Shown: positions 1 to 15,867 of the stretch, piece by piece
How the letters are laid out: every line of letters starts with the position of its first letter
Position numbering within the stretch: the first letter of the stretch is position 1
NCBI GenBank assembly: GCA_009777365.1
Contig: WRLZ01000003.1
Coordinates: 1-15,872 of the forward strand
Reading direction: 5' to 3'
DNA: 15,872 bases
From: Candidatus Saccharimonadota bacterium
Lineage (GTDB): Bacteria > Patescibacteriota > Saccharimonadia > Saccharimonadales > Saccharimonadaceae
Position numbers and translations under genes: made by a program
The notes under the pieces: model-generated
Told to the model about the DNA's origin: nothing
What the model saw: only the letters and a program-made list of their open reading frames with translations
Database searches by the model: none

Positions 1-42
1 GAATCCGAAATGGTTAGCTCGGCAGAGATTGGAAGAAGATAG
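1..42 (+). CDS. C-terminal end of a second serine recombinase copy (partial)
   Basis: The first 42 bases encode the last 13 residues of a large serine recombinase, ESEMVSSAEIGRR, then TAG. They are identical to the end of the complete recombinase read on the minus strand at 4522-6336. The rest of this copy lies left of the window. It is the coding part of the exact 111-bp inverted repeat. It either marks a second, oppositely oriented copy of the mobile element or, if the window starts at a contig edge, a repeat overlap made by the assembler. Confidence 0.7.
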   Translation, partial: ESEMVSSAEIGRR

Positions 43-111
43 CCCAAACAAGGCTATTCCAAGCCTTTTAATCCCTGCCCAAAAAACTGTTTTATGGGTA
101 GTGAGCCATGG
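1..111. repeat. Inverted repeat, copy 1 (mobile-element end)
   Basis: Positions 1-111 are the exact reverse complement of 4453-4563 (1 pairs with 4563, 111 with 4453). Identity stops right after the CATGG core, where this copy continues with CTTGGCTCCC and the other with GCCATTTCGG. The divergence point coincides with the inferred integration core, so the two copies are the same element end in two chromosomal contexts. The repeat may extend leftward beyond the window. Confidence 0.9.
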
Positions 112-4214: not shown

Positions 4215-4256
4215 GCCCTGGAACTGGAAGTGAATCCCAGTTCCAGGGCGTTTATA
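4215..4256 (+). terminator. Rho-independent terminator of secE-nusG
   Basis: A perfect 13-bp stem, GCCCTGGAACTGG (4215-4227) with its complement at 4237-4249, has a 9-nt loop and is followed by GTTTATAATTATT. It lies 50 bp after the nusG stop. A weaker AT-rich hairpin (AACTTTTCTTT / AAAGAAAAGTT, 4170-4194) lies between them. Confidence 0.85.
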
Positions 4257-4315
4257 ATTATTGTGAATTTTCCCACGCATGCGCCGCAGGGGGCCACGGC
4301 TTTAGCCGTGGGGGT

Positions 4316-4452
4316 CCACGAAAACCGATGTGTGCGTGCACGCCGCCGTGTGTGGCACTGAGGGATTCGACACCTGGGGCAGTGGTATCGACCATAGCTG
4401 ACACGCCGCCACGCATGAACCAGCGGCCAACGGTGTCATTGACCGAAATGGC
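4316..4452 (-). pseudogene. C-terminal remnant of an FGE-like (C-type-lectin-fold) protein, distal part
   Basis: Read on the minus strand this encodes AISVNDTVGRWFMRGG, then GVES, HGGVHAH and IGFRG, the W-x2-RGG ... GVE ... GG ... IGFR pattern of the C-terminus of formylglycine-generating-enzyme-like/SUMF1 surface proteins. There is no start codon or proper end: after IGFRG it runs into a small hairpin (CCACGGC tttA GCCGTGG, 4294-4311). The matching upstream part lies on the other side of the mobile element at 8291-8315. Joined through the CATGG core, the two parts form one reading frame, ...KSSEWSGAW-AISVND... The remnant is homologous to 9668-9843. Such folds are common variable proteins of diversity-generating retroelements, but no reverse transcriptase is in view. 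Confidence 0.6.
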
Positions 4453-4563
4453 CCATGGCTCACTACCCATAAAACAGTTTTTTGGGCAGGGATTAAAAGG
4501 CTTGGAATAGCCTTGTTTGGGCTATCTTCTTCCAATCTCTGCCGAGCTAACCATTTCGGATTC
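4453..4563. repeat. Inverted repeat, copy 2 (recombinase-proximal element end)
   Basis: This is the exact reverse complement of 1-111. It contains the last 14 codons (stop included) of the recombinase gene, about 69 bp of non-coding end and the terminal repeat with the CATGG core. Confidence 0.9.
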
Positions 4564-6276
4564 TAATATATCCAGCTTTCCTATAGCCCCTATAAGGCTA
4601 AAGTGGACTGTTATCTCTTGAATCCGTTTGCCCGTGCTTTTGTCGGGCGCGTGGACTTCTATCTGCTCAATCAGCTCATTGAGAATTGTGGGCGTTAGAT
4701 TCGTAACATTGGTCTGCCTGCGAATAATCCGTACAAACTGCTCCACGCCCACGGACTTCTGCTCGGTTTCCTCAATTTGCTCTCTAAGGCTTTTGGCACT
4801 GGCTTCCAGCTCTTTCTGCTCACGTTCGTAACCCTCGGATAGTTTGTTAAACCGCTCATGGGAGAGCCTGCCGTCAACATTATCCTCAAAAAGACGCTGA
4901 ATGTATCGGTCTAGCTCCACGATGCGGCTCTCTATCTTGGCAAGGTTGCTCTTGTCGGCAATGAGTGCTTTACGGCTCTTAGCCTCCGCTCCCTGCATAA
5001 TGTGAGCAACAAAGGCTTTCTCATGCTGGGTGGCAAAATCTTTGACACGCTCCAAGTATTCGGATACCATTTGCTCAAGCGTAACAGAGCGGATATAGTG
5101 CGAATGGCTACAGGTTGCTTTCTTGCTACGAAAGCCAGAGCATACGTAAGCATCTTGTTCTTGTGTCTGATTAGCTCCCGATGTAAAGTAATGCCTACTG
5201 CCGCACTCTTCGCAGAAAACAATTCCCGCAAACAGTCCGACTCTTCCGCTGTTGGTACGTCTACGTCTGCCCTCTCGGAGTGTCTGCACTCGGTCAAAGG
5301 TTTCTTGGTCAATTATGGCGGGGTGGGTGTCCTCGAACACGACTTGGCTTTCAAGAGGATTATGCATGGTGGTCTTGTTTCTGAAAGACTTTGAGTAGGT
5401 TTTGAAGTTGACGGTGTGTCCTAGATACTCACGCCGAGCCAGTATGTTTTTTACGGTCGCTCCCTCCCAATCGTAGGGAATGGTTGGGAGTTTCTGTGGT
5501 ATACTAATACCCATATTAGCAAAATGGTGTGAGGGTGTTAGAATCTGTTCGTCTTTCAGTCTATTGGCAATGTGCGTTACGCCAAGTCCCGCAAGGCACA
5601 AGCGAAAGATTTTCCTCACCACTTCGGCGGCTACTTCGTCAATTACTAACTTCTTCTTGTCGCTTGGGTCTTTCATGTAACCATATGGAGCGAAAGAAGA
5701 TAACCTCTCTCCCGCCATACCCTTAGCCCGAAATACTGCTCTAACCTTTTTACTGGTATCACGAGCATAGTATTCGTTGAATAGACTGCGAATCGGAGCC
5801 ATGTCGTTCTCGCCTTTTGATGAATCAATGTTGTCGTTAATGGCAACAAATCTCACGTCAAGGTCGGGGAACATTATCTCGTGGTAGTAGTCTACCTTGA
5901 GACGGTCTCTTCCAAAGCGCGACAAGTCTTTCACAACAAAGCTCTTGACTCGTCCTGCTTCCACCAGGCCTAATGCCGCTTGCACGTCTGGTCTGTCGAA
6001 TGTTGTGCCGCTTATTCCGTCATCAACGAAGAAAACAGGATTAGGTAGGCGGTTGTCGTAGGCGAACTTGGCGAGGATTAGCTTCTGGTTCAAAATACTG
6101 TCAGAATCGTCCTCCTTGGTCTTGTCTTTACTCCTTTGCTTGTCGTCCTTAGACAGCCTAGCGTAGAGTACGGTTATGAAGTCGGGCAGGACAAGTGTTG
6201 CGGTATAGTCCGGTATTGAATTGTAAGGTGCTACAAGTCCAGCGTAAGGTGCTGGCTCCCTTTTGGGTTCTCTCAT
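4522..6276 (-). CDS. Large serine recombinase (TnpX/TndX-like)
   Basis: The enzyme cuts and joins the element ends and target through a serine-DNA intermediate. Numbering from the upstream ATG at 6336 (604 aa): the catalytic domain has YARLSKDD (serine 62), DDGISGTTFDRP (105-116) and DLSRFGRD (137-144); a recombinase domain follows (about 215-350); a zinc ribbon uses CEEC (375-378) with C399 and C409; a coiled coil spans about 420-520; and the end (about 540-604, IEQIEVHAPDKS, ITVHFSLIG) matches the DUF4368 tail of Firmicutes transposases. The start at 6276 (MREPKREP) is preferred: a promoter with -10 TATAAT lies at 6322-6327, so the first ATG would be upstream of the transcript start, and AAAGG sits 8 bp before 6276. 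That gives 584 aa. The stop lies about 70 bp from the element end. It has the same 3' end as the partial copy at 1-42. Confidence 0.92.
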   Translation of the reverse strand: MREPKREPAPYAGLVAPYNSIPDYTATLVLPDFITVLYARLSKDDKQRSKDKTKEDDSDSILNQKLILAKFAYDNRLPNPVFFVDDGISGTTFDRPDVQAALGLVEAGRVKSFVVKDLSRFGRDRLKVDYYHEIMFPDLDVRFVAINDNIDSSKGENDMAPIRSLFNEYYARDTSKKVRAVFRAKGMAGERLSSFAPYGYMKDPSDKKKLVIDEVAAEVVRKIFRLCLAGLGVTHIANRLKDEQILTPSHHFANMGISIPQKLPTIPYDWEGATVKNILARREYLGHTVNFKTYSKSFRNKTTMHNPLESQVVFEDTHPAIIDQETFDRVQTLREGRRRRTNSGRVGLFAGIVFCEECGSRHYFTSGANQTQEQDAYVCSGFRSKKATCSHSHYIRSVTLEQMVSEYLERVKDFATQHEKAFVAHIMQGAEAKSRKALIADKSNLAKIESRIVELDRYIQRLFEDNVDGRLSHERFNKLSEGYEREQKELEASAKSLREQIEETEQKSVGVEQFVRIIRRQTNVTNLTPTILNELIEQIEVHAPDKSTGKRIQEITVHFSLIGAIGKLDILESEMVSSAEIGRR

Positions 6277-6321
6277 AAAGAAATTCCTTTCTTTAAGAGA
6301 AACCTCCTCCTTGTGCGTTCC

Positions 6322-6350
6322 ATTATACCGCATCATGGCTAAATCTCCAA
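6322..6350 (-). promoter_or_regulatory. Promoter of the recombinase gene
   Basis: On the minus strand a -35 TTGGAG (6345-6350) and a -10 TATAAT (6322-6327) are separated by 17 bp. They overlap the end of the tnpW-like gene and the first codons of the longest recombinase ORF, which supports translation from the internal ATG at 6276. Between the start site and that ATG is AGGAGGAG, and the second ribosome site lies in the loop of a weak AAAGAAA/TTTCTTT hairpin. Confidence 0.55.
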
Positions 6351-7519: not shown

Positions 7520-7673
7520 TCATTACCCTCTAGTGAATGTTTACCACACCAAATCCCTACGGCATAGGGCTTTGGCTATTGTAACTCTACTGTAACCGAC
7601 ACCGAAATAAAAGCTGGCTGGTTACAGAGAAGACACACTACACCTCGACTATTCTACATGACCCCAAACGATA

Positions 7674-7826
7674 CCAACCACGCCCGCCACGTTAGTAGCA
7701 TGAAACTCCCCATTTCTCCACGTTTTCTCAGAGCTAGAGGGGTCTCGGAATCTCCGAGACCCCTCTAGCTCAACGTGGTAGAAAAAAGTGTGGTGGGGAG
7801 TTGTAGTTCGTGGCGGGCGTGGTTGG
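7674..7826. repeat. Long imperfect inverted repeat, 153 bp
   Basis: The outer arms CCAACCACGCCCGCCACG (7674-7691) and their exact complement (7809-7826) enclose further pairing: ACTCCCC with GGGGAGT, CCACGTT with AACGTGG, and a perfect 19-bp stem GAGCTAGAGGGGTCTCGGA (7731-7749) with its complement (7753-7771) around a 3-nt loop ATC. No clear target duplication flanks it. It may be a folded MITE nested in the element, or a functional structure such as an origin. Confidence 0.85.
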
Positions 7827-7903
7827 AGTTATTTTATGGGTGTGTAATGTATTTGGGTGGGAATTTATGTAGTATGATAGATATTATTTAGATTTAATAT
7901 ATA

Positions 7904-7975: not shown

Positions 7976-8290
7976 ACAAAAAGAAAACGTAGAATGCTGG
8001 CTTTGGGTACTAAGGCGACAGGAGGCTTTGTGTGCTGCATAGGGGGAGATTGTTCATAGATTTGGGATAGTAAGGCATGGTTGCAGAAGTGAAGCGACAC
8101 AGGGGCTGACAATGCCTGTTATTTACTATATACTTAGAGTAGACAAACATCATAAGAAGATAAGGCGCTCCGCTAGGGAGCGCCTATTTGCGATATTCTA
8201 TCGCATGATTACAAGGGGGATAGTTTCTCTTTAGTATTTAATTGATTTATTCGCTAATTTTCCATACTGTTTTATCTGTAGTGAGCCATG

Positions 8291-8315
8291 CCCCCGACCA
8301 CTCAGAGGATTTAAG
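8291..8315 (-). pseudogene. FGE-like remnant, proximal part, cut off by the element
   Basis: Read on the minus strand it encodes LKSSEWSG and then enters the element at the CATGG core. It is 24 of 25 identical to the start of the homologous remnant at 9819-9843 (LKSSGWSGA). With the element removed it continues in frame into 4452-4316. The homology ends 5 bp from the -35 of the glycosyltransferase promoter. Confidence 0.6.
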
Positions 8316-8320
8316 GATGG

Positions 8321-8488: not shown

Positions 8489-9665
8489 TTCTCGTAATCA
8501 GGGAAAATCGATTAGGGTGGCACTGGTAGTGCCACATGTTTTTATCAATCGTGATTTGCTCCCGAGGGTGATTTTTTCGCCGGGGCATTTGGCCCTAAAG
8601 CTGGCGGAGGGACTTGGAGAATTTGGTGTCGATGTAACATTATTTACGCCGGGTCCTGCCGATACTAAGCTACCGAATATCAACGCGGATATGTCGTATT
8701 TTGAGAAGGAACTTATGGGGCGTGGGTATGGCTATATGGAATTATTAAAGAAGCATCCTGCTACTTTTGTGGCGTTGGCGCGACAGGTGCAGGCCGAGCT
8801 GATGGCGAAGGTTTATGAAGTGGCGAATGATGGGGATTTTGATGTGGTGCATGTTTATACGAATGAAGAAGATATTGCGATGGTTTTTGCTGACTTTTGC
8901 CAGAAACCGGTGTTATTTACCCACCATGATCCGTTTAATTTTTTGATAAAATATAAGTCTGTGATGCCAAAATATAAGTATTTGAGTTGGATTTCGATGA
9001 GCCAATCTCAACGACTTGGTATGCCAGAGGATACGAATTGGGTGGCGAATATTCACCACGGGGTTGACCCAGATGATTATGTGCCGAGGTTTGAAACGGA
9101 TGGTGAAACGGAGGAGGATTATTTTGCGTTTGTCGGGAGGATTATTGAGCCGAAGGGGGTGCATTTGGCGATAGAGGCTGTGAAGTTATATAATAAGAAA
9201 AATCCCGAAAAGAAAACTAGGCTTAGAATTGCGGGGAAGCATTATAGCGACAGTAGTAAGGATAAGTATTGGTCGGAAGTTGTTGAGCCGTGTCTTGGGG
9301 AAGAGGTTGAATATGTAGGGTTTTTGCAAGGGAAAGAGCTGAATGATTTTTTGGCTAGGGCGAGGGCGCTTGTGGTGCCGTCGACTTTTTCGGAGCCTTT
9401 TGGGATGGTAACATTAGAGGCTCTGGCTTCGGCGACGCCGGTTATTGGGCTGTCGGTCGGTGCTACTTCGGAGATTATTGAGAATGGGAAAACAGGGTTT
9501 ATTATAATGGCGGAAGATGAAGCATCTCGCATTGGGGGGATTGCTGAGGCGATGGAGAGGGTATCGGAGATAGATCGGCGGGATTGTCGCAGGCATTTTG
9601 AGCAGAATTTTACTTTGGAGAAGATGATTCGTGAGCATGCGGAGTTGTACAAGTTTTATAAATAA
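8457..9665 (+). CDS. GT4-family (GT-B fold) glycosyltransferase
   Basis: The 402-aa protein transfers a sugar from a nucleotide-sugar donor to an unidentified acceptor, probably for cell-surface glycans. The N-terminal Rossmann domain begins IRVALVVPHVF (about 19-29), with an acceptor-side loop at FSPGHLALKLAEGL. The C-terminal domain begins FAFVGRIIEPKGVHLAIEA (about 223-241). The donor-binding E-x7-E motif is E313 and E321 in EPFGMVTLEALAS, followed by PVIGLSVGATSEII and GKTGFI. The first 18 residues are very basic and could bind the membrane surface. The start at 8457 lies within the small acidic ORF, and no alternative ATG precedes the conserved core. The gene ends 2 bp before an FGE-like remnant that runs on the opposite strand. 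Confidence 0.88.
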   Translation: MKTRPKKTRHSSRNQGKSIRVALVVPHVFINRDLLPRVIFSPGHLALKLAEGLGEFGVDVTLFTPGPADTKLPNINADMSYFEKELMGRGYGYMELLKKHPATFVALARQVQAELMAKVYEVANDGDFDVVHVYTNEEDIAMVFADFCQKPVLFTHHDPFNFLIKYKSVMPKYKYLSWISMSQSQRLGMPEDTNWVANIHHGVDPDDYVPRFETDGETEEDYFAFVGRIIEPKGVHLAIEAVKLYNKKNPEKKTRLRIAGKHYSDSSKDKYWSEVVEPCLGEEVEYVGFLQGKELNDFLARARALVVPSTFSEPFGMVTLEALASATPVIGLSVGATSEIIENGKTGFIIMAEDEASRIGGIAEAMERVSEIDRRDCRRHFEQNFTLEKMIREHAELYKFYK

Positions 9666-9667
9666 CC

Positions 9668-9843
9668 CCACGAAAACCAATATCTCCAGCGGGGACAGGA
9701 CCACCAGGTCCCCTGGCGGTCGCCTCTACTCCCGAGGTGGCACCCGAAGCACCTCCGCCGCGCGTAGACCACGGACCATTATTGCCAGAAGGATCCTCTA
9801 GGACAGACCAAGATAGTGCCCCCGACCACCCAGAGGATTTAAG
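9668..9843 (-). pseudogene. FGE-like C-terminal remnant or cassette
   Basis: On the minus strand the 176 bp encode LKSSGWSGALSWSVLED, then NNGPWSTRGGGASGA, SGVEA, PGGP and GDIGFRG, which aligns with the split remnant 8291-8315 + 4316-4452. The first 26 bases (CTTAAATCCTCTG-g/a-GTGGTCGGGGGC) and the last (GGTTTTCGTGG) are nearly identical in both copies, while the middle has diverged. There is no start codon. The frame is open upstream to the thyA TGA and runs on into the antisense of the glycosyltransferase. It fills the whole gap between the convergent glycosyltransferase and thyA genes. A stem GGGGAC/GTCCCC (9699-9721) within it might help terminate both. Confidence 0.55.
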
Positions 9844-9864
9844 ATGACTTTTCCTAGAGTGAGA

Positions 9865-10710
9865 TCAGATTATGACGATGGGGACTTTGATGGCTGGGTG
9901 GGATTTGTAGTTAATCACCTCAAAGTCGTCGAACTTGAAATCGTCGATGGTTTTTTGATCGCCGTGGATTTTTAGCTGGGAGAAGGGGAGGGGTTTTCTT
10001 TGCAATTGCTCTTTTGCGGCTTCGAGCTGGTTGGTGTATAGGTGTGCATCTCCGATGCTGATGACAAATTCTCGCGCTTCTAGTCCAGTGATTTTGGCAA
10101 TCATCATTAGTAATTGTGTGTACTGCGCGATATTGAAGGGTAGGCCCAGGAAGACGTCGCTGGCACGCTGATAGAGTTGCAAGTAGAGTTTGCCTTTGAT
10201 GACGTCGAGTTGGAACATGGTATGGCAAGGGGGGAGTCGCATTTCGCTAAGCTCTCCAGCGTTCCAGCCCGAGACGATAATGGCTTTGCTATTTGGGTTG
10301 TTCTTGACTTCGTCAATTGCCCACTGGAGTTGGTCGAACTCTGTTCCGTCGGGGCGTTTCCAGTGTCGCCACTGAACTCCGTAGATTCGTCCGAGGGTTC
10401 CTTCCTTGACGGAGCCGTCGTCTTGGAAGCCGTCCCAAATTTTCACGCCATTTTTATTCAAATATTCCGGGTTTTGGCATTTGCCGGAGATGAACCAGAG
10501 CATTTCGTGCGTCAAGGCCTTGAGCCCGAACATTTTTTTGGTGGTCATCAGTGGGAATCCGTAGCGTAGGTCAAAGCGAAGCTGAGCTCCGAAGACGGAC
10601 TTGATCGGAACGATGCCGCGGGTTTGTTTGGTTTTACCTTCCTTTAGGATGCGGGCTAGTAGTTCCAAGTATTGATACTCGGGGTGGACAGATTTCTTCT
10701 CTTTACTCAT
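9865..10710 (-). CDS. thyA: Thymidylate synthase
   Basis: ThyA methylates dUMP to dTMP with methylene-tetrahydrofolate. The 281-aa protein is full length and has all key residues: R31 for phosphate binding, EMLWFISG (69-76), W129 region, the catalytic C162 in LPPCHTMFQ, QRASD (181-185), GLPFN (189-193) and DAHLYTNQ (221-228). SGWN replaces the common SAWN (147-150). It ends ...IKVPIVII, the normal family end. AGGAGG lies 4 bp before the ATG, inside the end of the dCMP deaminase gene (8-bp overlap). The upstream deaminase supplies dUMP, so the pair forms a short dTMP pathway. Confidence 0.97.
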   Translation of the reverse strand: MSKEKKSVHPEYQYLELLARILKEGKTKQTRGIVPIKSVFGAQLRFDLRYGFPLMTTKKMFGLKALTHEMLWFISGKCQNPEYLNKNGVKIWDGFQDDGSVKEGTLGRIYGVQWRHWKRPDGTEFDQLQWAIDEVKNNPNSKAIIVSGWNAGELSEMRLPPCHTMFQLDVIKGKLYLQLYQRASDVFLGLPFNIAQYTQLLMMIAKITGLEAREFVISIGDAHLYTNQLEAAKEQLQRKPLPFSQLKIHGDQKTIDDFKFDDFEVINYKSHPAIKVPIVII

Positions 10711-11593
10711 TATACCTCCTATATTTTATCCCAGCCCTGCTAAATAAATTATACCCGTAGTCGTCGCCGTAGTCAAGTTCGTAGACTACTTCCTTGATGC
10801 CAGCGTAGAGGATGTTTTTGGCGCAGTGGGGGCAGGGAAAAGTTTGCATGTATAGTGTTGCGCCTTTTGCCTTTGGGCCTGCTTCCATCAGGGCTGCGGT
10901 TTCGGCGTGGACTGTGTCGTATTTTGAGCTATCACCTGGGGGAGATTTGTGTTTTTCTCGCTCGAGGCCGTGGTGCCAGGCGTAGGTTTCGTAGGGGACT
11001 ACTGTGTTGTGGGCGAGGGCGATTATTTTGTTGTCTTTTACTACTGCGGCTGCGGTTTGGAAATCGGTGATGAAGGCTTTACTGGCTTCTTTTTTGATAA
11101 TTTCTTGCAGGCTGGGGTCAGATAGACGAGAATCGGTCAAGAGATCTTCACGGCCGCTAGTCTCTTGACGCGATTCTGTCTGTTTAACTTTATCCGCAAA
11201 ATCTTTAGCTTCCTGCTCGTCGACGAATGGGGATTCGTAGCGGATTTCGGCGCCTTTTGATATAATGGCGTCGCATTCTGGGCGGAGGTGGAAGCTGCGG
11301 TGGAAGGAGCCGTTGATGATGATGGCGCGGTTGAAGTCTAGTTGGTTTATCATGTCTACTCCGTCTGATTGAGGGTATTCTACTACTGTGAGACGGCCGC
11401 CGGATTTGGCGGCTAGGTTCTTGACGAAGTCGCCTTGGAGGGTTTTGAATTGGGGTTGATTCTCGAAGCCGGCAATATATTTCTCATGAGCGATGCCGAA
11501 AGTAACTTTGCCTCGGGGAAGGTATTTTTTAAGGAGGCTCTTGATTCTCGCTTGGCTCATTTCTCGGGGTGCTAGGACAAAATACTTATTCAT
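10703..11593 (-). CDS. Two-domain protein with C-terminal dCMP deaminase
   Basis: The C-terminal domain (about 165-296) is a zinc-dependent cytidine/deoxycytidylate deaminase: H229-A-E231 (VHAETAAL) and C254-P-H-C257 (FPCPHCAKNILYAGI) are the zinc ligands and catalytic glutamate. The product dUMP feeds ThyA, whose gene overlaps by 8 bp. The N-terminal domain (about 1-125) begins FVLAPREMSQARIKSLLKKY and has an alternating strand-helix pattern ending RYESPFV; I do not recognise it. The linker (about 138-159) is encoded by a 64-bp palindrome (11119-11182) that looks like an in-frame insertion. The start overlaps the HIT gene by 8 bp, indicating translational coupling. At 296 aa it is about twice the usual length of a dCMP deaminase. 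Confidence 0.85.
   Translation of the reverse strand: MNKYFVLAPREMSQARIKSLLKKYLPRGKVTFGIAHEKYIAGFENQPQFKTLQGDFVKNLAAKSGGRLTVVEYPQSDGVDMINQLDFNRAIIINGSFHRSFHLRPECDAIISKGAEIRYESPFVDEQEAKDFADKVKQTESRQETSGREDLLTDSRLSDPSLQEIIKKEASKAFITDFQTAAAVVKDNKIIALAHNTVVPYETYAWHHGLEREKHKSPPGDSSKYDTVHAETAALMEAGPKAKGATLYMQTFPCPHCAKNILYAGIKEVVYELDYGDDYGYNLFSRAGIKYRRYNE
11119..11182. repeat. In-frame palindromic sequence in the deaminase linker
   Basis: Arms 11119-11143 (containing AGAATCGGTCAAGAG) and 11162-11182 (CTCTTGACGCGATTCT) pair almost completely, with one bulge in the inner 15 bp and a looser outer CAGA/TCTG, around an 18-nt loop (ATCTTCACGGCCGCTAGT). It encodes residues 138-159, between two folded domains, without breaking the frame. 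Confidence 0.7.
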
Positions 11594-12110
11594 ACTTGTC
11601 GGAAAACCTTTTGCTGAGTTTTTGCAGTTTGTCGTGTTTGTTTTTGTAAAGATTGGAGTTTTCTGCGGGGGTGTGCTTTAGTTTGCGATAATTCCAAACG
11701 GATAGGTCTGGTTCGTCGAAGGGTATGACTTGGAAGTGGATATGGTCGGGGACGGTGGCTTGGGAGGTGACGCCGTCTTTTTGGACGTATTGAACACTCT
11801 TGATGCCATGGACTTCTCGGATGATCTTCTTGGCTAGGTACATGAATTTGCGGATGGTCTCCCATTCTTCAGTGGTTAGATCCTTGACTGAGCGTACGTG
11901 ACGGCGGGGGACTATGAGAATATGGCCGTCGATGTAGGCGTATAATGGTACGGTCATGACTACGCCGTTTTCTTCATGGAAGACGTATTTGTCGTTCATT
12001 TCGCAAAAGCAGCATTTTCCGACGGTTTGCCAGATGTTGTCGTATTTGCCGGTTATACGAGCGTCGCGGTAGTTGGCTTGTTTCTGTTCCTCTGTAAAAT
12101 CCTTTGCCAT
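11586..12110 (-). CDS. HIT-superfamily hydrolase/transferase
   Basis: The 174-aa protein has the histidine-triad signature H123-I-H125-F-Q127 in PDHIHFQVIP. The third His of HxHxH is Gln, as in the Ap4A phosphorylase/GalT branch, so it may be a nucleotidyl transferase or phosphorylase rather than a Hint-type hydrolase. A CCFC cluster (33-36) and DGHILIVPRRHVRS (61-74) are the usual N-terminal features; the Cys may bind zinc. The C-terminal 35 residues are basic and probably helical. It starts one base after the stop of the nucleotidyltransferase gene with AAGGAG upstream, and overlaps the deaminase by 8 bp, so all four genes form one operon. Its nucleotide substrate is not known. Confidence 0.85.
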   Translation of the reverse strand: MAKDFTEEQKQANYRDARITGKYDNIWQTVGKCCFCEMNDKYVFHEENGVVMTVPLYAYIDGHILIVPRRHVRSVKDLTTEEWETIRKFMYLAKKIIREVHGIKSVQYVQKDGVTSQATVPDHIHFQVIPFDEPDLSVWNYRKLKHTPAENSNLYKNKHDKLQKLSKRFSDKYE

Positions 12111-12111
12111 G

Positions 12112-12660
12112 TTACTCCTTGAGGGGGTCCTTGCGGTATTGCATAAAATCTTTTAGAATATCTGAAAGGGAGCCGCCGATGGCGCGGGCTACGATGGCCG
12201 AGGTGGAGATTCTGCTGGATTGCCGGTCGACAACTTCTACTCTTCCACCATATTTCACCACGGTCTTATACTCCTTGGAGTTTTTGTAATCTGCGGCCCA
12301 GTCTTCGCGAACGGTCATGTAGACGTCTGGCTTCAGGAGGCCGAGGGAGGGTTGGCAGCTGGGTTCCGGTACGATGGTTACGAAGTCTACGGCGCGGAGA
12401 TATGTCAAGACTTCGGCTCGGGCTTTTTCTCCGAGGATTGGCTTGTTCGGGCCCTTGACTCGGCTGATGGCTTTGTCGCCGACGACTCCGACGACTAGTA
12501 TGTCGCCGAGCTTTTTGCCTTCTTCCAAGTAACGACACTGTCCGGCATGAATCAAGTCCCAAGAACCTGCTGTGAAGACAATGCGTTTGCCACTTTCGCG
12601 GAGCTTTTCACCAAGCTCCATCAAGTCGCTCTGTCCCACCAGACGCTTTTTCCAACTCAT
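12112..12660 (-). CDS. HxGH-type nucleotidyltransferase (RfaE domain II/cytidylyltransferase-like)
   Basis: The 182-aa protein has the RfaE-D2-like layout: a helix with RLVGQSDLMELGEKLRESG, the strand VFTAGSWDLIHAGQCRYLEEGKKLGD (28-53), VVGVVGDKAISRVKGPNKP (58-73), a helix RAEVLTYLRAVDFV (81-94), and ISTSAIV (151-157) for ISSTxIR. The second His of the ATP/CTP-binding HxGH is Gln41 (HAGQ), a notable change. It may activate a sugar phosphate or alcohol phosphate with a nucleotide. The ORF opens at 12768, but the ATG at 12660 begins the conserved part and has GGAGG 5 bp upstream. That ribosome site can pair with an upstream CUUCCG, so initiation may be regulated. First gene of the operon leading to thyA. 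Confidence 0.8.
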   Translation of the reverse strand: MSWKKRLVGQSDLMELGEKLRESGKRIVFTAGSWDLIHAGQCRYLEEGKKLGDILVVGVVGDKAISRVKGPNKPILGEKARAEVLTYLRAVDFVTIVPEPSCQPSLGLLKPDVYMTVREDWAADYKNSKEYKTVVKYGGRVEVVDRQSSRISTSAIVARAIGGSLSDILKDFMQYRKDPLKE

Positions 12661-12664
12661 GTTT

Positions 12665-12690
12665 CCTCCGTAATTTATCTGCTGCGGAAG
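12665..12690 (-). promoter_or_regulatory. Ribosome-site-sequestering hairpin in the operon leader
   Basis: On the minus strand CTTCCG (12685-12690) can form six pairs (one G-U) with the ribosome site CGGAGG (12665-12670) across a 14-nt loop. AATTAC occurs twice just beside these segments, and an upstream GTAATT could pair with either copy, so alternative folds are possible. Confidence 0.4.
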
Positions 12691-12761
12691 GTAATTCCAA
12701 AAGTGTGGTCCTGAAATTACTCTTAAAGGGCCTCTGCTTACGCTTTGGCGCTTTGCTCCCG

Positions 12762-13940
12762 CTAACAATTATATTGTAGCATATTACTTGCAAGAAGTAT
12801 ATCTCGGGTTTTCAGATAGTGGTGGTTGCTTGCTAGGGATTCGTAGGGGTTGTGGCGAAGGAATTTGTAGAAGTCGTGGATCAGGAAGAAGTTTGCTAGG
12901 GATTCAAACAGTTTCGGATCGAGGTCTATTTGGCTCTGGCCACGCTTGTTGTATCCTGATTCTATGAGGTACTTGAAAATCTTTTTTGGGGGTTTGCTGG
13001 GGACGTCGACGAGGAGGAAGGCGAAGGAGCGGGCGAGGTCTAGGGTTGGGTGGCCTAGGGCGGCTTTTTCGAAGTCGATGATGCCTGAGAGATGTACAGA
13101 ACCTACACGCCAGCAACTCAGACAAGATAACTCCAAGCGTACAGCGTCGTCCGCACCCGTCGCTACGGGGCGGACGCGCTTCTCTCTCAAGCTGCCGCTT
13201 TCCGAGATGCCGCTTGGAGTTGATTCGCCCAAGTCAACCTCAAATTCGACTTCTGCGCCTTCGGAGCGGCCGATCCAGTTTTTCTGGGCTTCTTTGACGC
13301 CGGATGGCCAGTCGAGGGAGTCGACGTCGCCCAAGAGTTGGTCGGCGTAGGCTGTGATTTTGAAGAACCATTGGTTCATGCGGCGTTTTTCGACTTGGCA
13401 TTTGCAGCGCCAGCAGAGGCCGTCTTCGACTTGTTCGTTGGCGAGGACGGTTTTGTCATTTGGGCACCACCATTGGAGGTTTTCAGCGCGATAGACTAGG
13501 CCGCGTTCATAGAGTTTCTTGAAAATCCATTGGGTCCAGCGGTAATATTCGGGGTCGGAAGTGAGGATTTCCCTGCTCCAGTCGATGGAAACGCCCATGC
13601 GCTTGAATTGGCGCTTGAAGTTGGTGACGTTTTCGATTGTTACTTCTTGGGGGCTTTTGCCGGTTTTGATGGCGTAGTTTTCGGTCGGCATGCCGAAGTT
13701 GTCCCAGCCCATTGGGTTTAAGACGTTGTGGCCGCTTTGGCGGTAGAATCGGGCCATGGCGTCGACGATGGCGTAGACTTTGGCGTGGCCGGCGTGGAGG
13801 CCGGCGGCGGAAGGATATGGGAATTGTCCGGCGACGTATTTTTTGGGTTTTGGGTCAAAATCTTTAGCTTTGAAGGTTTCTTTGTCTTCCCAGATTTTTT
13901 GCCATTTTGGTTCAATGTTGCTTGGATTGTACCGTTTCAT
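12762..13940 (-). CDS. Chimeric ORF: LeuRS N-terminus fused to APH-like kinase tail
   Basis: Residues 1 to about 236 are a clean leucyl-tRNA synthetase N-terminus: PYPSAAGLHAGH (41-52, the HIGH motif is HAGH), NPMGWDNFGMPTENYAIK (75-92), WFFKITAYADQLL (191-203), NWIGRSEGAEVEFEV (221-235). LeuRS then stops at the beginning of the editing domain: no KMSKS, anticodon-binding or C-terminal domain. Residues 240-271 come from a 93-bp palindromic insert. From about 284 to 392 the sequence is the C-terminus of an aminoglycoside-phosphotransferase/choline-kinase-like protein: GIIDFEKAALGHPTLDLA has the metal-binding DxE and D..LA features, but the kinase N-lobe and catalytic HxD loop are missing. Neither activity should be complete. 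It may be a fused remnant of two genes, or an assembly join. An ATG with AAGGAG upstream and a promoter at 14061-14089 remain. Confidence 0.75.
   Translation of the reverse strand: MKRYNPSNIEPKWQKIWEDKETFKAKDFDPKPKKYVAGQFPYPSAAGLHAGHAKVYAIVDAMARFYRQSGHNVLNPMGWDNFGMPTENYAIKTGKSPQEVTIENVTNFKRQFKRMGVSIDWSREILTSDPEYYRWTQWIFKKLYERGLVYRAENLQWWCPNDKTVLANEQVEDGLCWRCKCQVEKRRMNQWFFKITAYADQLLGDVDSLDWPSGVKEAQKNWIGRSEGAEVEFEVDLGESTPSGISESGSLREKRVRPVATGADDAVRLELSCLSCWRVGSVHLSGIIDFEKAALGHPTLDLARSFAFLLVDVPSKPPKKIFKYLIESGYNKRGQSQIDLDPKLFESLANFFLIHDFYKFLRHNPYESLASNHHYLKTRDILLASNMLQYNC
12768..12778 (-). promoter_or_regulatory. Possible promoter of the nucleotidyltransferase-thyA operon
   Basis: On the minus strand TGcTACAAT (-10 at 12773-12778), immediately followed by TATAAT (12768-12773), lies in the last codons of the chimeric ORF. 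No good -35 is seen. It would give a leader of about 100 nt for the nucleotidyltransferase gene. Confidence 0.45.
13129..13221. repeat. 93-bp palindromic insert in the LeuRS/kinase ORF
   Basis: Perfect 11-bp terminal inverted repeats (AACTCCAAGCG, 13129-13139, and its complement, 13211-13221) enclose a strong internal hairpin: GTCCGC-a-CCCGT, loop CGCT, then ACGGG-GCGGAC (13149-13175). GAT flanks both sides (13126-13128 and 13222-13224), a possible 3-bp target duplication. Its length, 31 codons, keeps the reading frame open. Confidence 0.75.
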
Positions 13941-13991
13941 TTTATAGAATCTCCTTAGTTAGATAAATTATTTTCGTTCGCGATAAAATTA

Positions 13992-14054
13992 TTAATAGAA
14001 ATAGAATGCCCCTTTGGGCAAGACGAGGGTGAAAATGGAGATTGTTTGATTCAT
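13992..14054 (-). CDS. Possible leaderless 20-aa leader peptide before the LeuRS-like ORF
   Basis: An ATG lies exactly 6 bp after the -10, so transcription would start at or next to its first base. The frame encodes MNQTISIFTLVLPKGAFYFY then TAA, 51 bp before the downstream ORF. A small GCCC/GGGGC hairpin followed by a U-rich stretch overlaps its second half. It contains two Leu codons (CTC, TTG), so leucine attenuation is not obvious; F and Y dominate the end. Confidence 0.35.
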   Translation of the reverse strand: MNQTISIFTLVLPKGAFYFY

Positions 14055-14060
14055 GTTTGT

Positions 14061-14089
14061 ATTGTATCATGTTTGTCTTGATTTTTCAA
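14061..14089 (-). promoter_or_regulatory. Promoter of the LeuRS-like ORF
   Basis: On the minus strand a -35 TTGAAA (14084-14089) and an extended -10 TGaTACAAT (-10 at 14061-14066) are 17 bp apart. The downstream leader of about 110 nt contains a 20-codon ORF and AAGGAG before the ATG at 13940. Confidence 0.65.
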
Positions 14090-14102
14090 TAAAGCTCAAG
14101 AT

Positions 14103-14130
14103 AAAACACCCTAAGCTGCTAGGGTGTTTT
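14103..14130 (-). terminator. Terminator of the ABC transporter operon
   Basis: AAAACACCCTA (14103-14113) pairs perfectly with TAGGGTGTTTT (14120-14130) around a 6-nt loop. On the minus strand the stem is followed by a T run. It lies about 30 bp after the permease stop and separates that operon from the LeuRS-like promoter. Confidence 0.85.
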
Positions 14131-14161
14131 GTGCGAAAAAGCTTCTTGTTACTACTGGTGG

Positions 14162-15079
14162 TTATTCTGTTCTGAGGGCTTCGACGGGGTCGAGTTTGGC
14201 GGCTTTGCGAGCTGGGAACCAACCAGATAGGACGGCGACGATGACGAGGCTGGCGATGAGGATGAGGGCTTGGAAGATGTTGATTTGGAGGAGGCGGGTG
14301 GATGGGTCGCTTAGCTCGAGGAATGAAGCAAAGAGAGGGTTGGCAAGAGTAATGAGCCAAGCGATGACTACGCCGATGAGACCACCGAGGAAGCCGATCC
14401 AAGCGGCTTCGTAGCGGAAGAGGCGGGCAATATCGCGGCGGCGCATGCCGAGGGCGCGCATGAGGCCGATTTCGCGGGTGCGTTCGAGGACGGAGATGTA
14501 TTGCGTGTTGATGACGCCGAAGATTGAAGCTAGGACTGCAAGAGCGCCGAAGCCAATGAGGCCCCACTGGGCGACGTTGATGGATTGCATGGTACCTTCG
14601 CGGCGATCCCATTCAGATTGGATAAAAAATGTCACAAAGCCCAGGTCTTCAAGGGTTCTACTGATTGCTATTGATGTTTCATCAATACTACTCCTGCCTT
14701 CATGCTTGGCACGAACGACAACCGAGTAGGCGCAATCTGTTTCGTTGCCGTCTTCATCGGTCATTGTTCCATATCTGCTATCGAAAAACACCTCTTCAAC
14801 TTGCTCAAGGCTTTCTAGTTTTTCAATTTCTGGGGCACAGAACATGTCATATTCTTCTGTTTCTGGGTTCATGCCACCTGCATGAACCGTCATATCACGA
14901 GGGCTGATGCCGCTGTTTTCCATTTGTTTAGTGATCATATCACGACCGCCGTTGCCGGCGGCAAGGGCGAGGCAGATGGTGGTGGCGCCAACGGCGATGG
15001 CGAGGGAGGTTAGGATGGTGCGGCCTCGCGATTGTTTGAGGTTGCGGCGGGCGCGGTTTATTAGATCAATTCGTTTCAT
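14162..15079 (-). CDS. ABC transporter permease (MacB/FtsX type), short form
   Basis: The 305-aa membrane protein has four predicted helices: about 19-43 (RTILTSLAIAVGATTICLAL), 170-193 (WGLIGFGALAVLASIFGVIN), 226-247 (AAWIGFLGGLIGVVIAWLIT) and 268-290 (IFQALILIASLVIVAVLSGW). The typical MacB/FtsX segment ISVLERTREIGLMRALGMRRRDI (about 195-217) and the end GWFPARKAAKLDPVEALRTE are clear. The outside domain between helices 1 and 2 is about 125 residues, shorter than usual, and the protein is about 100 residues below the family norm, so an internal loss is possible. It overlaps the ATPase gene by ATGA, showing coupled translation of one transporter. The substrate (lipoprotein, peptide or lipid) cannot be told. 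Confidence 0.88.
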   Translation of the reverse strand: MKRIDLINRARRNLKQSRGRTILTSLAIAVGATTICLALAAGNGGRDMITKQMENSGISPRDMTVHAGGMNPETEEYDMFCAPEIEKLESLEQVEEVFFDSRYGTMTDEDGNETDCAYSVVVRAKHEGRSSIDETSIAISRTLEDLGFVTFFIQSEWDRREGTMQSINVAQWGLIGFGALAVLASIFGVINTQYISVLERTREIGLMRALGMRRRDIARLFRYEAAWIGFLGGLIGVVIAWLITLANPLFASFLELSDPSTRLLQINIFQALILIASLVIVAVLSGWFPARKAAKLDPVEALRTE

Positions 15080-15867
15080 GACTTAGCTCCTTTATGTGAC
15101 GGGTCCTGTCGGCCGTTTCCCCCAGAAAAGGTCGACAAGTTTGCGACTTTTCTGGTGGCCCCCCTCCGGCCGCCACCCGTCATTAAAAGACCATCTTTTT
15201 CTATCTTCTCGACTTGGCCGTCGCTGATGTGGATTTGCATGTCGCATTTGGTTGCTAGGGCTTCGTCGTGGGTGACGATGATGAGGGTGGTGCCGTTCTT
15301 TTTGTTGTATGAGAAAAGTAGCTTTTCGATTTGGTCGCCGGTTGTTGTGTCGAGGTTGCCAGTGGGTTCATCGGCGAAGAGGATTCGGGGGTTGTCTACG
15401 ATGGCGCGGGCGATGGCGAGGCGTTGTTTTTGGCCGCCGGAGAGGTTGCGTGCAAGCTCGTGACGCTTGTCGGATAGGTCGACGGCTTTTAGGGCTTTGT
15501 CTATGGCGGATTGGCGTTCGGCATGGGAGATGTCGTTGATTTCAAGTGGCAGGCCGACGTTATTGGAGCAGGTTTCGTTGCCGCTGACGAAGAAGCTTTG
15601 GAAAACAAAGCTCATTTCGCTGGCGCGGAAGTCGTCGATTTTGTTTTCGGGCCACTCTAGGATGTTTTGTCCGTCGATGATGATTTCGCCCTGCTCTGGT
15701 CGGTCGAGTCCGGAGATGACGTGCATTAGGGTGGATTTGCCCGAGCCGCTTCGACCGACGATAGCGACGCTGGTGCCATCAGGGATCTCGAAACTGACGT
15801 CTCTGAGCGCCGTGAAGGTATTACCCTTGGTGCCGTAGATTTTTGTGATATTTTTTACTTTTATCAT
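15076..15867 (-). CDS. ABC transporter ATP-binding protein (MacB/LolD type)
   Basis: The 263-aa ATPase powers the permease encoded by the overlapping downstream gene. Walker A is GRSGSGKST (38-46), the Q-loop FVFQSFF, the signature LSGGQKQR (about 143-150), Walker B ILFADEP and the H-loop THD. The normal domain ends near DGQVEKIEKDG (about 226). The last ~35 residues (TGGGRRGATRKVANLSTF, GGNGRQDPSHKGAKS) are not part of the family and are encoded by an 86-bp palindromic sequence (15097-15182). The ATG at 15865-15867 is preceded by AGGAA at the window edge; any promoter lies outside. LolD/MacB-like proteins are usually 220-230 aa, so the tail is an addition. Confidence 0.92.
   Translation of the reverse strand: MIKVKNITKIYGTKGNTFTALRDVSFEIPDGTSVAIVGRSGSGKSTLMHVISGLDRPEQGEIIIDGQNILEWPENKIDDFRASEMSFVFQSFFVSGNETCSNNVGLPLEINDISHAERQSAIDKALKAVDLSDKRHELARNLSGGQKQRLAIARAIVDNPRILFADEPTGNLDTTTGDQIEKLLFSYNKKNGTTLIIVTHDEALATKCDMQIHISDGQVEKIEKDGLLMTGGGRRGATRKVANLSTFSGGNGRQDPSHKGAKS
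15097..15182. repeat. 86-bp palindromic sequence at the 3' end of the ABC ATPase gene
   Basis: TGACGGGT (15097-15104) pairs with ACCCGTCA (15175-15182). Inside, CGGCCG occurs on both sides and CCAGAAAAGGTCG (15122-15134) pairs with CGACTTTTCTGG (15144-15155) with one bulge around a 9-nt loop. It encodes residues 229-257, beyond the end of the conserved ATPase domain, and keeps the frame to the ATGA junction with the permease. Confidence 0.7.

What the first reader, a model, noticed from the sequence alone, without database searches (positions are those of the whole stretch)
11119..15182. Three palindromic sequences sit in frame inside three different ORFs
Seen directly: foldable segments of 64, 93 and 86 bp (11119-11182, 13129-13221, 15097-15182) lie in a domain linker, a fusion junction and a C-terminal tail. 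None breaks the frame. Their sequences differ, so they may be separate families or only share a mode of insertion. Rickettsia palindromic elements are the known precedent for hairpin elements inserted in frame into protein genes at tolerated sites. I know of none described for this group. Inference: a selfish or recoding palindrome system adds surface peptides to proteins.
Basis: partly seen in the sequence, partly recalled or inferred. Interest (0 to 1): 0.75.

Follow-up and report, generated by a model that had tools for sequence, protein, structure and literature searches.

The report
Palindromic DNA inserted inside bacterial genes
Short hairpin-forming DNA elements have spread through the genomes of some tiny Saccharibacteria and sit in frame inside housekeeping protein genes, adding about 20 to 50 amino acids; a similar phenomenon was known from Rickettsia, but these families look new.

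Summary
The three hairpins are real and lie in frame in three ORFs. Two belong to dispersed families with conserved unpaired cores and freely changing, still-paired stems.

F1 (11119-11182, deaminase): 10 full copies in this genome, three well inside ORFs, none convincing in relatives. Stem covariation 0.69 against 0.25 in shuffles.

F2 (13129-13221, LeuS ORF): found in 30 of 131 genomes of the family, up to 28 copies each. Of 83 copies collected, 43 lie in frame in ORFs, including PriA, Der, ObgE, LeuS, IleS, AlaS, DnaX, PolA, UvrC and TrmD. Between two same-genus genomes, 6 of 11 comparable sites are empty. Covariation 0.765 against 0.234.

In three of six comparisons, judged by eye, one arm is host sequence and the opposite arm its inverted copy: a hint at how insertion builds the stem, not proof.

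The third hairpin has no detected copies. The LeuS-kinase "fusion" may be a misjoin or rearrangement at the repeat. The elements work like Rickettsia palindromic elements; membership was not shown. No description was seen in the paper listings searched.

The parts
11119..11182 (+). F1 palindromic element: core AGATCTTCACGGCCGCTAGTCT (11142-11163) with paired arms; covariance match 11118-11186; in frame in the linker before the deaminase domain
10703..11593 (-). host ORF of the F1 copy: cytidine/dCMP deaminase family protein, domain at residues 164-272
   Evidence: Pfam PF00383 E 1.8e-16; orthologues aligned
13129..13221 (-). F2 palindromic element: outer stem plus two inner hairpins; apex read as PVATG; in frame
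   Evidence: R3 100.4 bits; this copy is one of those the model was built from
12762..13940 (-). host ORF of the F2 copy: LeuS N-terminus (13233-13931), then F2, then the C-terminal part of a gene that lies near the deaminase in four of six relatives (kinase-like by eye, recalled; no Pfam match to this part); possible chimera at the element
15097..15182 (-). orphan hairpin in the C-terminal tail of the ABC ATPase; no second copy detected
15076..15867 (-). ABC transporter ATPase carrying the orphan hairpin in its tail
   Evidence: PF00005 E 2.6e-35; homologue tails

Best explanation
F1 and F2 are small dispersed palindromic elements, about 67 bp (F1) and about 90 bp plus outer arms (F2), apparently non-autonomous and selfish. 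They insert at many places in certain Saccharibacteria. Copies in genes persist where the inserted DNA is open and in frame and falls in a loop or linker, so the protein gains about 20 to 50 residues (supported by ORFs and by empty orthologous sites). What is conserved is the unpaired core; stems may have almost any sequence as long as they pair (shown by covariation). Inferred: hairpin formation in single-stranded DNA, not the encoded peptide, is what mobilises or preserves the element, and the outer stem is at least partly built from the target by inverted copying of a flanking host stretch, as in template switching. The enzyme or process that moves them is unknown.
For: Copies: F1 10 full loci in G000, nine of them the model's own sequences and C76 found by it; F2 in 30 of 131 family genomes at E<=1e-3, up to 28 per genome; six of the 30 had supplied sequences to the model. 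Structure: covariation 0.693 vs shuffles 0.254+-0.034 for F1 (9 sequences) and 0.765 vs 0.234+-0.007 for F2 (83 copies), slid controls at most 0.239 and 0.135; unpaired model columns 83% identical, paired 61%. In-frame insertion: 43 of 83 F2 copies in ORFs, 31 of these 43 in ORFs with an NCBIfam match (28 F2 ORFs scanned); 25 of 37 in the G002/G086 stretches. Empty sites: RsuA-like, TrmD, AlaS, IleS, UvrD-like and ObgE N-site between G086 and G002; Der linker 61-67 aa in 13 of 19 measured proteins, 97-115 aa in the three with a strong F2 match there; F1 sites in Dus and methylase absent in G086 or G002. Orientation 23 same, 20 opposite; all six frame classes used. Outer-arm pairing beyond the model exceeds the 99th percentile of random positions in 51 of 83 copies, 30 of 43 in ORFs. 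Inverted host arm in IleS, UvrD-like and TrmD, by eye.
Against: No target-site duplication above control, no transposase searched for, no live transposition seen. Same-genus comparisons are at about 63-87% protein identity, so exact insertion boundaries are uncertain. In RsuA-like and AlaS both arms look inserted and in ObgE both look host-like, and the automatic DNA alignment failed for AlaS and was poor for UvrD, so the inverted-copy step is neither general nor firmly measured. TruB and the TIGR01177 methylase hold element-like sequence in both genomes and ObgE's C-site is indeterminate. Open frames in ORF copies (3.74 of 6, vs 2.42 outside and 2.53 in shuffles) are biased, because an ORF copy needs at least one open frame. 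Of the 43 ORFs, 12 had no NCBIfam scan and some (L233, L244) may not be genes. At the methylase site G010 and L204 have variable residues. The deaminase gap is 10 aa, less than the element length. The orphan hairpin is not explained by F1 or F2.
Confidence: 0.77

Rival explanations
1. The elements are functional structured RNAs or mRNA regulators; stems covary because selection keeps an RNA fold.
For: Strong compensatory change in stems with conserved unpaired positions is what a structured RNA shows; the F2 model has a branched fold.
Against: In-ORF copies lie in either orientation relative to the gene (23 same, 20 opposite) in unrelated genes; same-genus orthologues lack several of them; no Rfam match in 8 F2 loci at E<=0.5 beyond a tRNA, and only tRNAs in the window and nine own loci at gathering thresholds.
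Confidence: 0.12
2. Ordinary coding linkers that happen to fold, or artefacts of amplification and assembly.
For: The window's LeuS ORF looks chimeric at the element and G000 is a fragmented draft; the orphan hairpin has no detected copies.
Against: Copies of one covarying family sit inside long contigs of several genomes (for example G130:C2 117,713 bp and G010:C3 156,522 bp, lengths matching named records); shuffled sequence gives no such hairpins.
Confidence: 0.05
3. The insertions are bypassed in translation or removed from the mRNA, so the peptides are never made (as reported for palindromes in Magnusiomyces mitochondria, mentioned in PMC6649704).
For: Insertion into conserved enzymes such as IleS, AlaS and PolA would be tolerated more easily.
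Against: In the in-ORF copies the element is open and the gene continues in the same frame after it; bypassing needs neither. This is partly by selection of the sample.
Confidence: 0.06

Closest known systems
Rickettsia palindromic elements (RPE) and Wolbachia palindromic elements
   Same: Palindromes of about 100-150 bp in several families, in and between genes, some in ORFs without destroying the frame (PMC3767692 and PMC10969869, passages read).
   Different: Other phylum; no RPE sequence was compared. RPEs are described as encoding a conserved peptide (PMC10969869, passage) and as losing arm identity with time (PMC6649704, discussion read); F2 stems change freely yet stay paired, and all frames are used.
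REP elements (GTAG- and CGTC-tagged)
   Same: Small palindromes, some inside ORFs of replication, repair and tRNA synthetase genes (PMC3733652, passages read).
   Different: REPs are 20-40 bp with a tetranucleotide tag at one end (abstract) and GTAG types are linked to RAYT transposases; F1/F2 are longer, with variable ends, and no fixed end tag was seen.
Coding palindromes of Nematomorpha mitochondria
   Same: Arms that stay perfectly paired inside protein genes, with template switching proposed (PMC6649704: abstract, introduction and discussion read).
   Different: There both arms encode conserved protein regions and no shared core is described in the parts read; F1/F2 are inserted families with a conserved core.
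Integron attC sites
   Same: Conserved fold with variable sequence (recalled).
   Different: In attC the outer boxes are conserved and the interior varies (recalled); here the core is conserved and the outer stem varies. No integrase was looked for.

Membership tests
Rickettsia palindromic elements | palindromic repeat dispersed in the genome in many copies | tested here: met
   F1 10 loci; F2 up to 28 per genome; not met for the 15097-15182 hairpin
Rickettsia palindromic elements | located in frame inside protein genes that have element-free orthologues | tested here: met
Rickettsia palindromic elements | one preferred frame giving a conserved peptide | tested here: not met
   F2 in-ORF copies: same strand phases 2, 0, 1 = 11, 9, 3; opposite phases 0, 2, 1 = 10, 5, 5. 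F1: two copies share QET[S/G]GRE, too few to judge
Rickettsia palindromic elements | sequence homology to an RPE family | not tested
   no RPE sequence was fetched
REP / RAYT system | GTAG or CGTC tag at one end and an associated RAYT transposase | tested here: inconclusive
   no fixed end tag seen in the F1 or F2 alignments; transposase not searched
MITE | terminal inverted repeats shared among copies and target-site duplications | tested here: not met
   outer arms differ from copy to copy; flanking direct repeats no more frequent than control
Known Rfam RNA families | match above threshold | tested here: not met

The most novel reading that the evidence does not exclude
Each insertion makes its own outer stem from the target: a conserved core is placed at a site and a neighbouring host stretch of about 15-20 nt is copied in inverted orientation onto the other side, so the element carries only a core and borrows its arms from the gene it enters. 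That would be a mode of DNA mobility without shared terminal repeats or target duplication that I do not know from any described element.
Probability: 0.3. Interest if true: 0.92.

Novelty: new variant of a known kind. Interest (0 to 1): 0.8.

Why it matters
Protein-coding palindromes have been treated mainly as a speciality of Rickettsia and Wolbachia. Finding separate families in Saccharibacteria, in dozens of housekeeping genes of small genomes, would show the phenomenon is not confined to that lineage. Because cores are conserved while stems co-vary freely across genera, there are enough copies to ask whether selection on structure or template-switch copying keeps the arms paired, and how new peptides are added to conserved proteins.

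Tried and rejected
Considered and dropped: chance folding; intrinsic terminators (no T-run after the F1 arms by eye; no terminator scan was run); DGR target hairpins (several F1 copies sit beside 'GFR' cassettes, but the window, C15 and C76 copies are inside genes; cassette variation judged by eye is not confined to particular codons); Rfam families. The F1 core found nothing in genome contigs or viral contigs and F2 patterns nothing in viral contigs; the tool warns that the own genome may be left out. Breadth of F2: of 286 genomes of the phylum, 9 matched at E<=1e-4; 4 are of the family, 4 others have one match each (E 6e-6 to 9e-5), and G529, of another family, has three (best E 3.5e-10), not followed up. 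The R1 matches in G004, G042, G011 and G039 (E 0.004-0.56) I do not count.

Literature searches for palindromic elements in Saccharibacteria or Patescibacteria: 15 of 26 listed; 12 of 102; 0; 12 of 40; 0; 10 of 1,561. I saw titles and abstract starts only and none described such an element; open-licence PMC papers alone were searched, so this is weak evidence of absence.

Rows left out: the LepA row (29% paralogue) and the DnaX and other partial rows were not used; PolA (only shorter) and LigA (ambiguous) are not counted as empty. In one search, 61 of 80 Der loci were dropped because my motif pattern did not match, leaving 19; L257 (84 aa), L269 (86) and L276 (97, E 0.097) have long linkers without a strong match. 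LeuS rows win, L047, L037, L085 and L049 were left out of the alignment and L051 was replaced by the G010 translation; L084 is a longer exception there. The C33 and C39 half copies and an F1-like hairpin at L115:5145-5227 (C18) are not among the 10. C21 (F1) is covered by a 151-aa open frame that ends near the contig end and is not counted as in a gene. The A4 and A5 alignments are fitted to the model, which favours pairing. One search sampled loci chosen from strong hits, and only part of the copies in G083, G130 and G086. Searches used stricter filters and scored only the best candidates, so counts are lower bounds.
Full report
Observation. The three segments fold far better than shuffled sequence on both strands, and each lies in frame in an ORF of the minus strand. 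The window is the whole contig C3 of an unnamed draft genome, G000 (645,058 bases, 88 contigs, 64% complete).

Family F1. The 11119-11182 hairpin shares its core with other loci of this genome while the arms differ and remain complementary. A pattern scan of 295 genomes of the family with up to two mismatches found it only in G000 (8 places, one of them the C33 half copy; reversed control 0). A covariance model (9 sequences; 22 of 26 pairs with changes on both sides; covariation 0.693 against 0.254+-0.034, 0 of 500 shuffles) found those nine loci again and one more, C76, in G000, the C33 half copy at E 0.09, and only weak matches in 30 relatives. Three of the 10 lie well inside ORFs: the deaminase of the window, a TIGR01177-type methylase on C15 (below NCBI's cut-off) and a 126-aa ORF on C76 (called Dus-like from the alignment and recall, since NCBIfam gave no match). 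G002 and G086 lack the methylase insertion (about 21 aa net) and G086 lacks the Dus one (about 30 aa); G010 and L204 have variable residues at the methylase site. At the window's own site the closest orthologue (65%) has a linker 10 aa shorter and the others have linkers of varying length.

Family F2. The 13129-13221 hairpin recurs in G000 at C5 (inside priA, with a 27-bp outer stem unrelated to the window's), C9 and, split, C53. A model from three copies already reached other genera. A second model, R3, from 22 copies of six genomes found matches at E<=1e-3 in 30 of 131 family genomes and 14 of 61 genera, up to 28 copies in one genome. Of 286 genomes drawn from the phylum, 9 matched at E<=1e-4: four of the family, four others with one match each, and G529 with three (best E 3.5e-10). 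On 83 copies, 35 of 37 pairs show changes on both sides, covariation is 0.765 against 0.234+-0.007 and slid structures give at most 0.135. Unpaired model columns average 83% identity, paired ones 61%; median pairwise identity is 54%.

Insertion into genes. Of these 83 copies, 43 are covered in frame by an ORF of at least 130 aa with at least 25 aa before and 3 aa after the element. I scanned 28 of the F2 ORFs, holding 31 of the 43 copies, plus two F1 ORFs, with NCBIfam. All 28 had a match: PriA, LeuS, ValS, IleS, AlaS, Der, ObgE, DnaX, PolA, LigA, UvrC, RecJ, TilS, TrmD, TruB, LepA, a pseudouridine synthase, and, below the curated cut-off of their family, TlyA-like, thioredoxin-reductase-like, UvrD-like and TIGR01177 methylase; one is a P-type ATPase. 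The other 12 copies were not scanned this way (the window's ORF was scanned with Pfam), and L233 and L244 may not be genes. Orientation relative to the gene is 23 same and 20 opposite, and every phase is used. In the G002/G086 stretches, 25 of 37 matches at E<=0.01 are in ORFs.

Empty sites. Between G086 and G002 (same genus) a usable spanning alignment existed for 11 sites; 6 are empty in the other genome (RsuA-like 37 aa, TrmD 33, AlaS 37, IleS 34, UvrD-like 49 in two gaps, ObgE N-site 23), PolA is shorter, LigA is ambiguous, and TruB, the methylase and the ObgE C-site carry sequence in both. In Der the distance from NKxD to the second P-loop is 61-67 aa in 13 of 19 measured proteins and 97-115 aa in the three with a strong F2 match there, two of which are the G010 and G130 copies already counted. 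In LeuS the G010 and G130 elements fill a loop that is short and variable in most of 28 other sequences, L084 being longer.

How the arms arise. F2 pairing continues beyond the model into the flanks in 51 of 83 copies above the 99th percentile of random positions; whole palindromes have a median of 127 bp over 88 copies, and flanking direct repeats are no commoner than control. By eye, in ileS, the uvrD-like gene and trmD of G086 the arm on one side corresponds to residues of the empty-site orthologue while the opposite arm, present only in the insertion, is its inverted copy; in ileS the 34-aa insertion equals the 85-nt model match plus a 17-nt arm. In the rsuA-like gene and alaS both arms look inserted, and in obgE both look host-like. 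I therefore give inverted copying of a host flank as the likeliest source of the outer stem, at low certainty.

The other two window features. The LeuS ORF stops being LeuS near residue 235, where three relatives carry Nudix-like insertions, continues through F2, and ends as the C-terminus of a gene (kinase-like by eye) that lies near the deaminase in four of six relatives. No strong match to another LeuS part was listed in G000. This is a misjoin or a rearrangement at the repeat; the data do not decide. The 15097-15182 hairpin lies in an ABC ATPase tail that is 41 aa after the aligned core against 9 in the same-genus G001, but tails vary from 2 to 82 aa among 29 homologues and no other copy was found.

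Comparison with known systems. RPEs and some REPs are the precedent for palindromes in genes (PMC3767692, PMC10969869, PMC3733652: passages read; PMC6649704: abstract, introduction and discussion read). F1 and F2 work like them, but differ in host phylum, lack a preferred frame (F2), and have stems that change freely while staying paired. Homology to an RPE sequence was not tested. I rate this a new variant of a known kind.

Noticed in passing
window about 4225-4430, 8289-8320, 9660-9845; L002, L005, L007 (several), L008, L009, L010, L011, L095, L097: Dispersed fragments with conserved ends (GAATCCTCTGGGTGGTCGGGGGC ... GGTTTTCGTGGGG) and variable middles, read as SSGWSGA...W(F)xRGG...NGFRG: orphan C-terminal cassettes scattered between genes, no Pfam match at E 0.1 for four tested ORFs; several beside F1 hairpins. 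Possibly a silent reservoir for a variable surface protein.
   Followed up: partly
L083, L084, L085 (G003, G007, G022) and L044, L045, L048, L049, L050, L052, L083: LeuRS of relatives carries Nudix-like inserts (named by eye, no family scan) of roughly 100-160 aa at two places in the editing-domain region, one at the position where the window's LeuS meets F2.
   Followed up: no
window 1-111 and 4453-4563: A 111-bp perfect inverted repeat between the contig start and the end of a serine recombinase gene (4522-6336): contig end in a repeat, or a possible invertible segment.
   Followed up: no
window 7655-7851: Large imperfect palindrome of about 200 bp with a perfect 19-bp inner hairpin (7731-7771) and an 18-bp outer one (7674-7826) in a gene-poor stretch.
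   Followed up: no
L009 (C33) and L010 (C39): Half F1 elements: one arm plus part of the core, both ending at nearly the same point near the apex (GACTAGCGGC), with unrelated sequence after it.
   Followed up: no
L199 1501-1734, L200 1219-1589, L201 1501-1746, L263 1998-2204: F2 copies in pairs of opposite orientation some 40-200 bp apart.
   Followed up: no
G529 (contigs C13, C23, C11): Three F2 model matches (best E 3.5e-10) in a genome of another family of the phylum.
   Followed up: no
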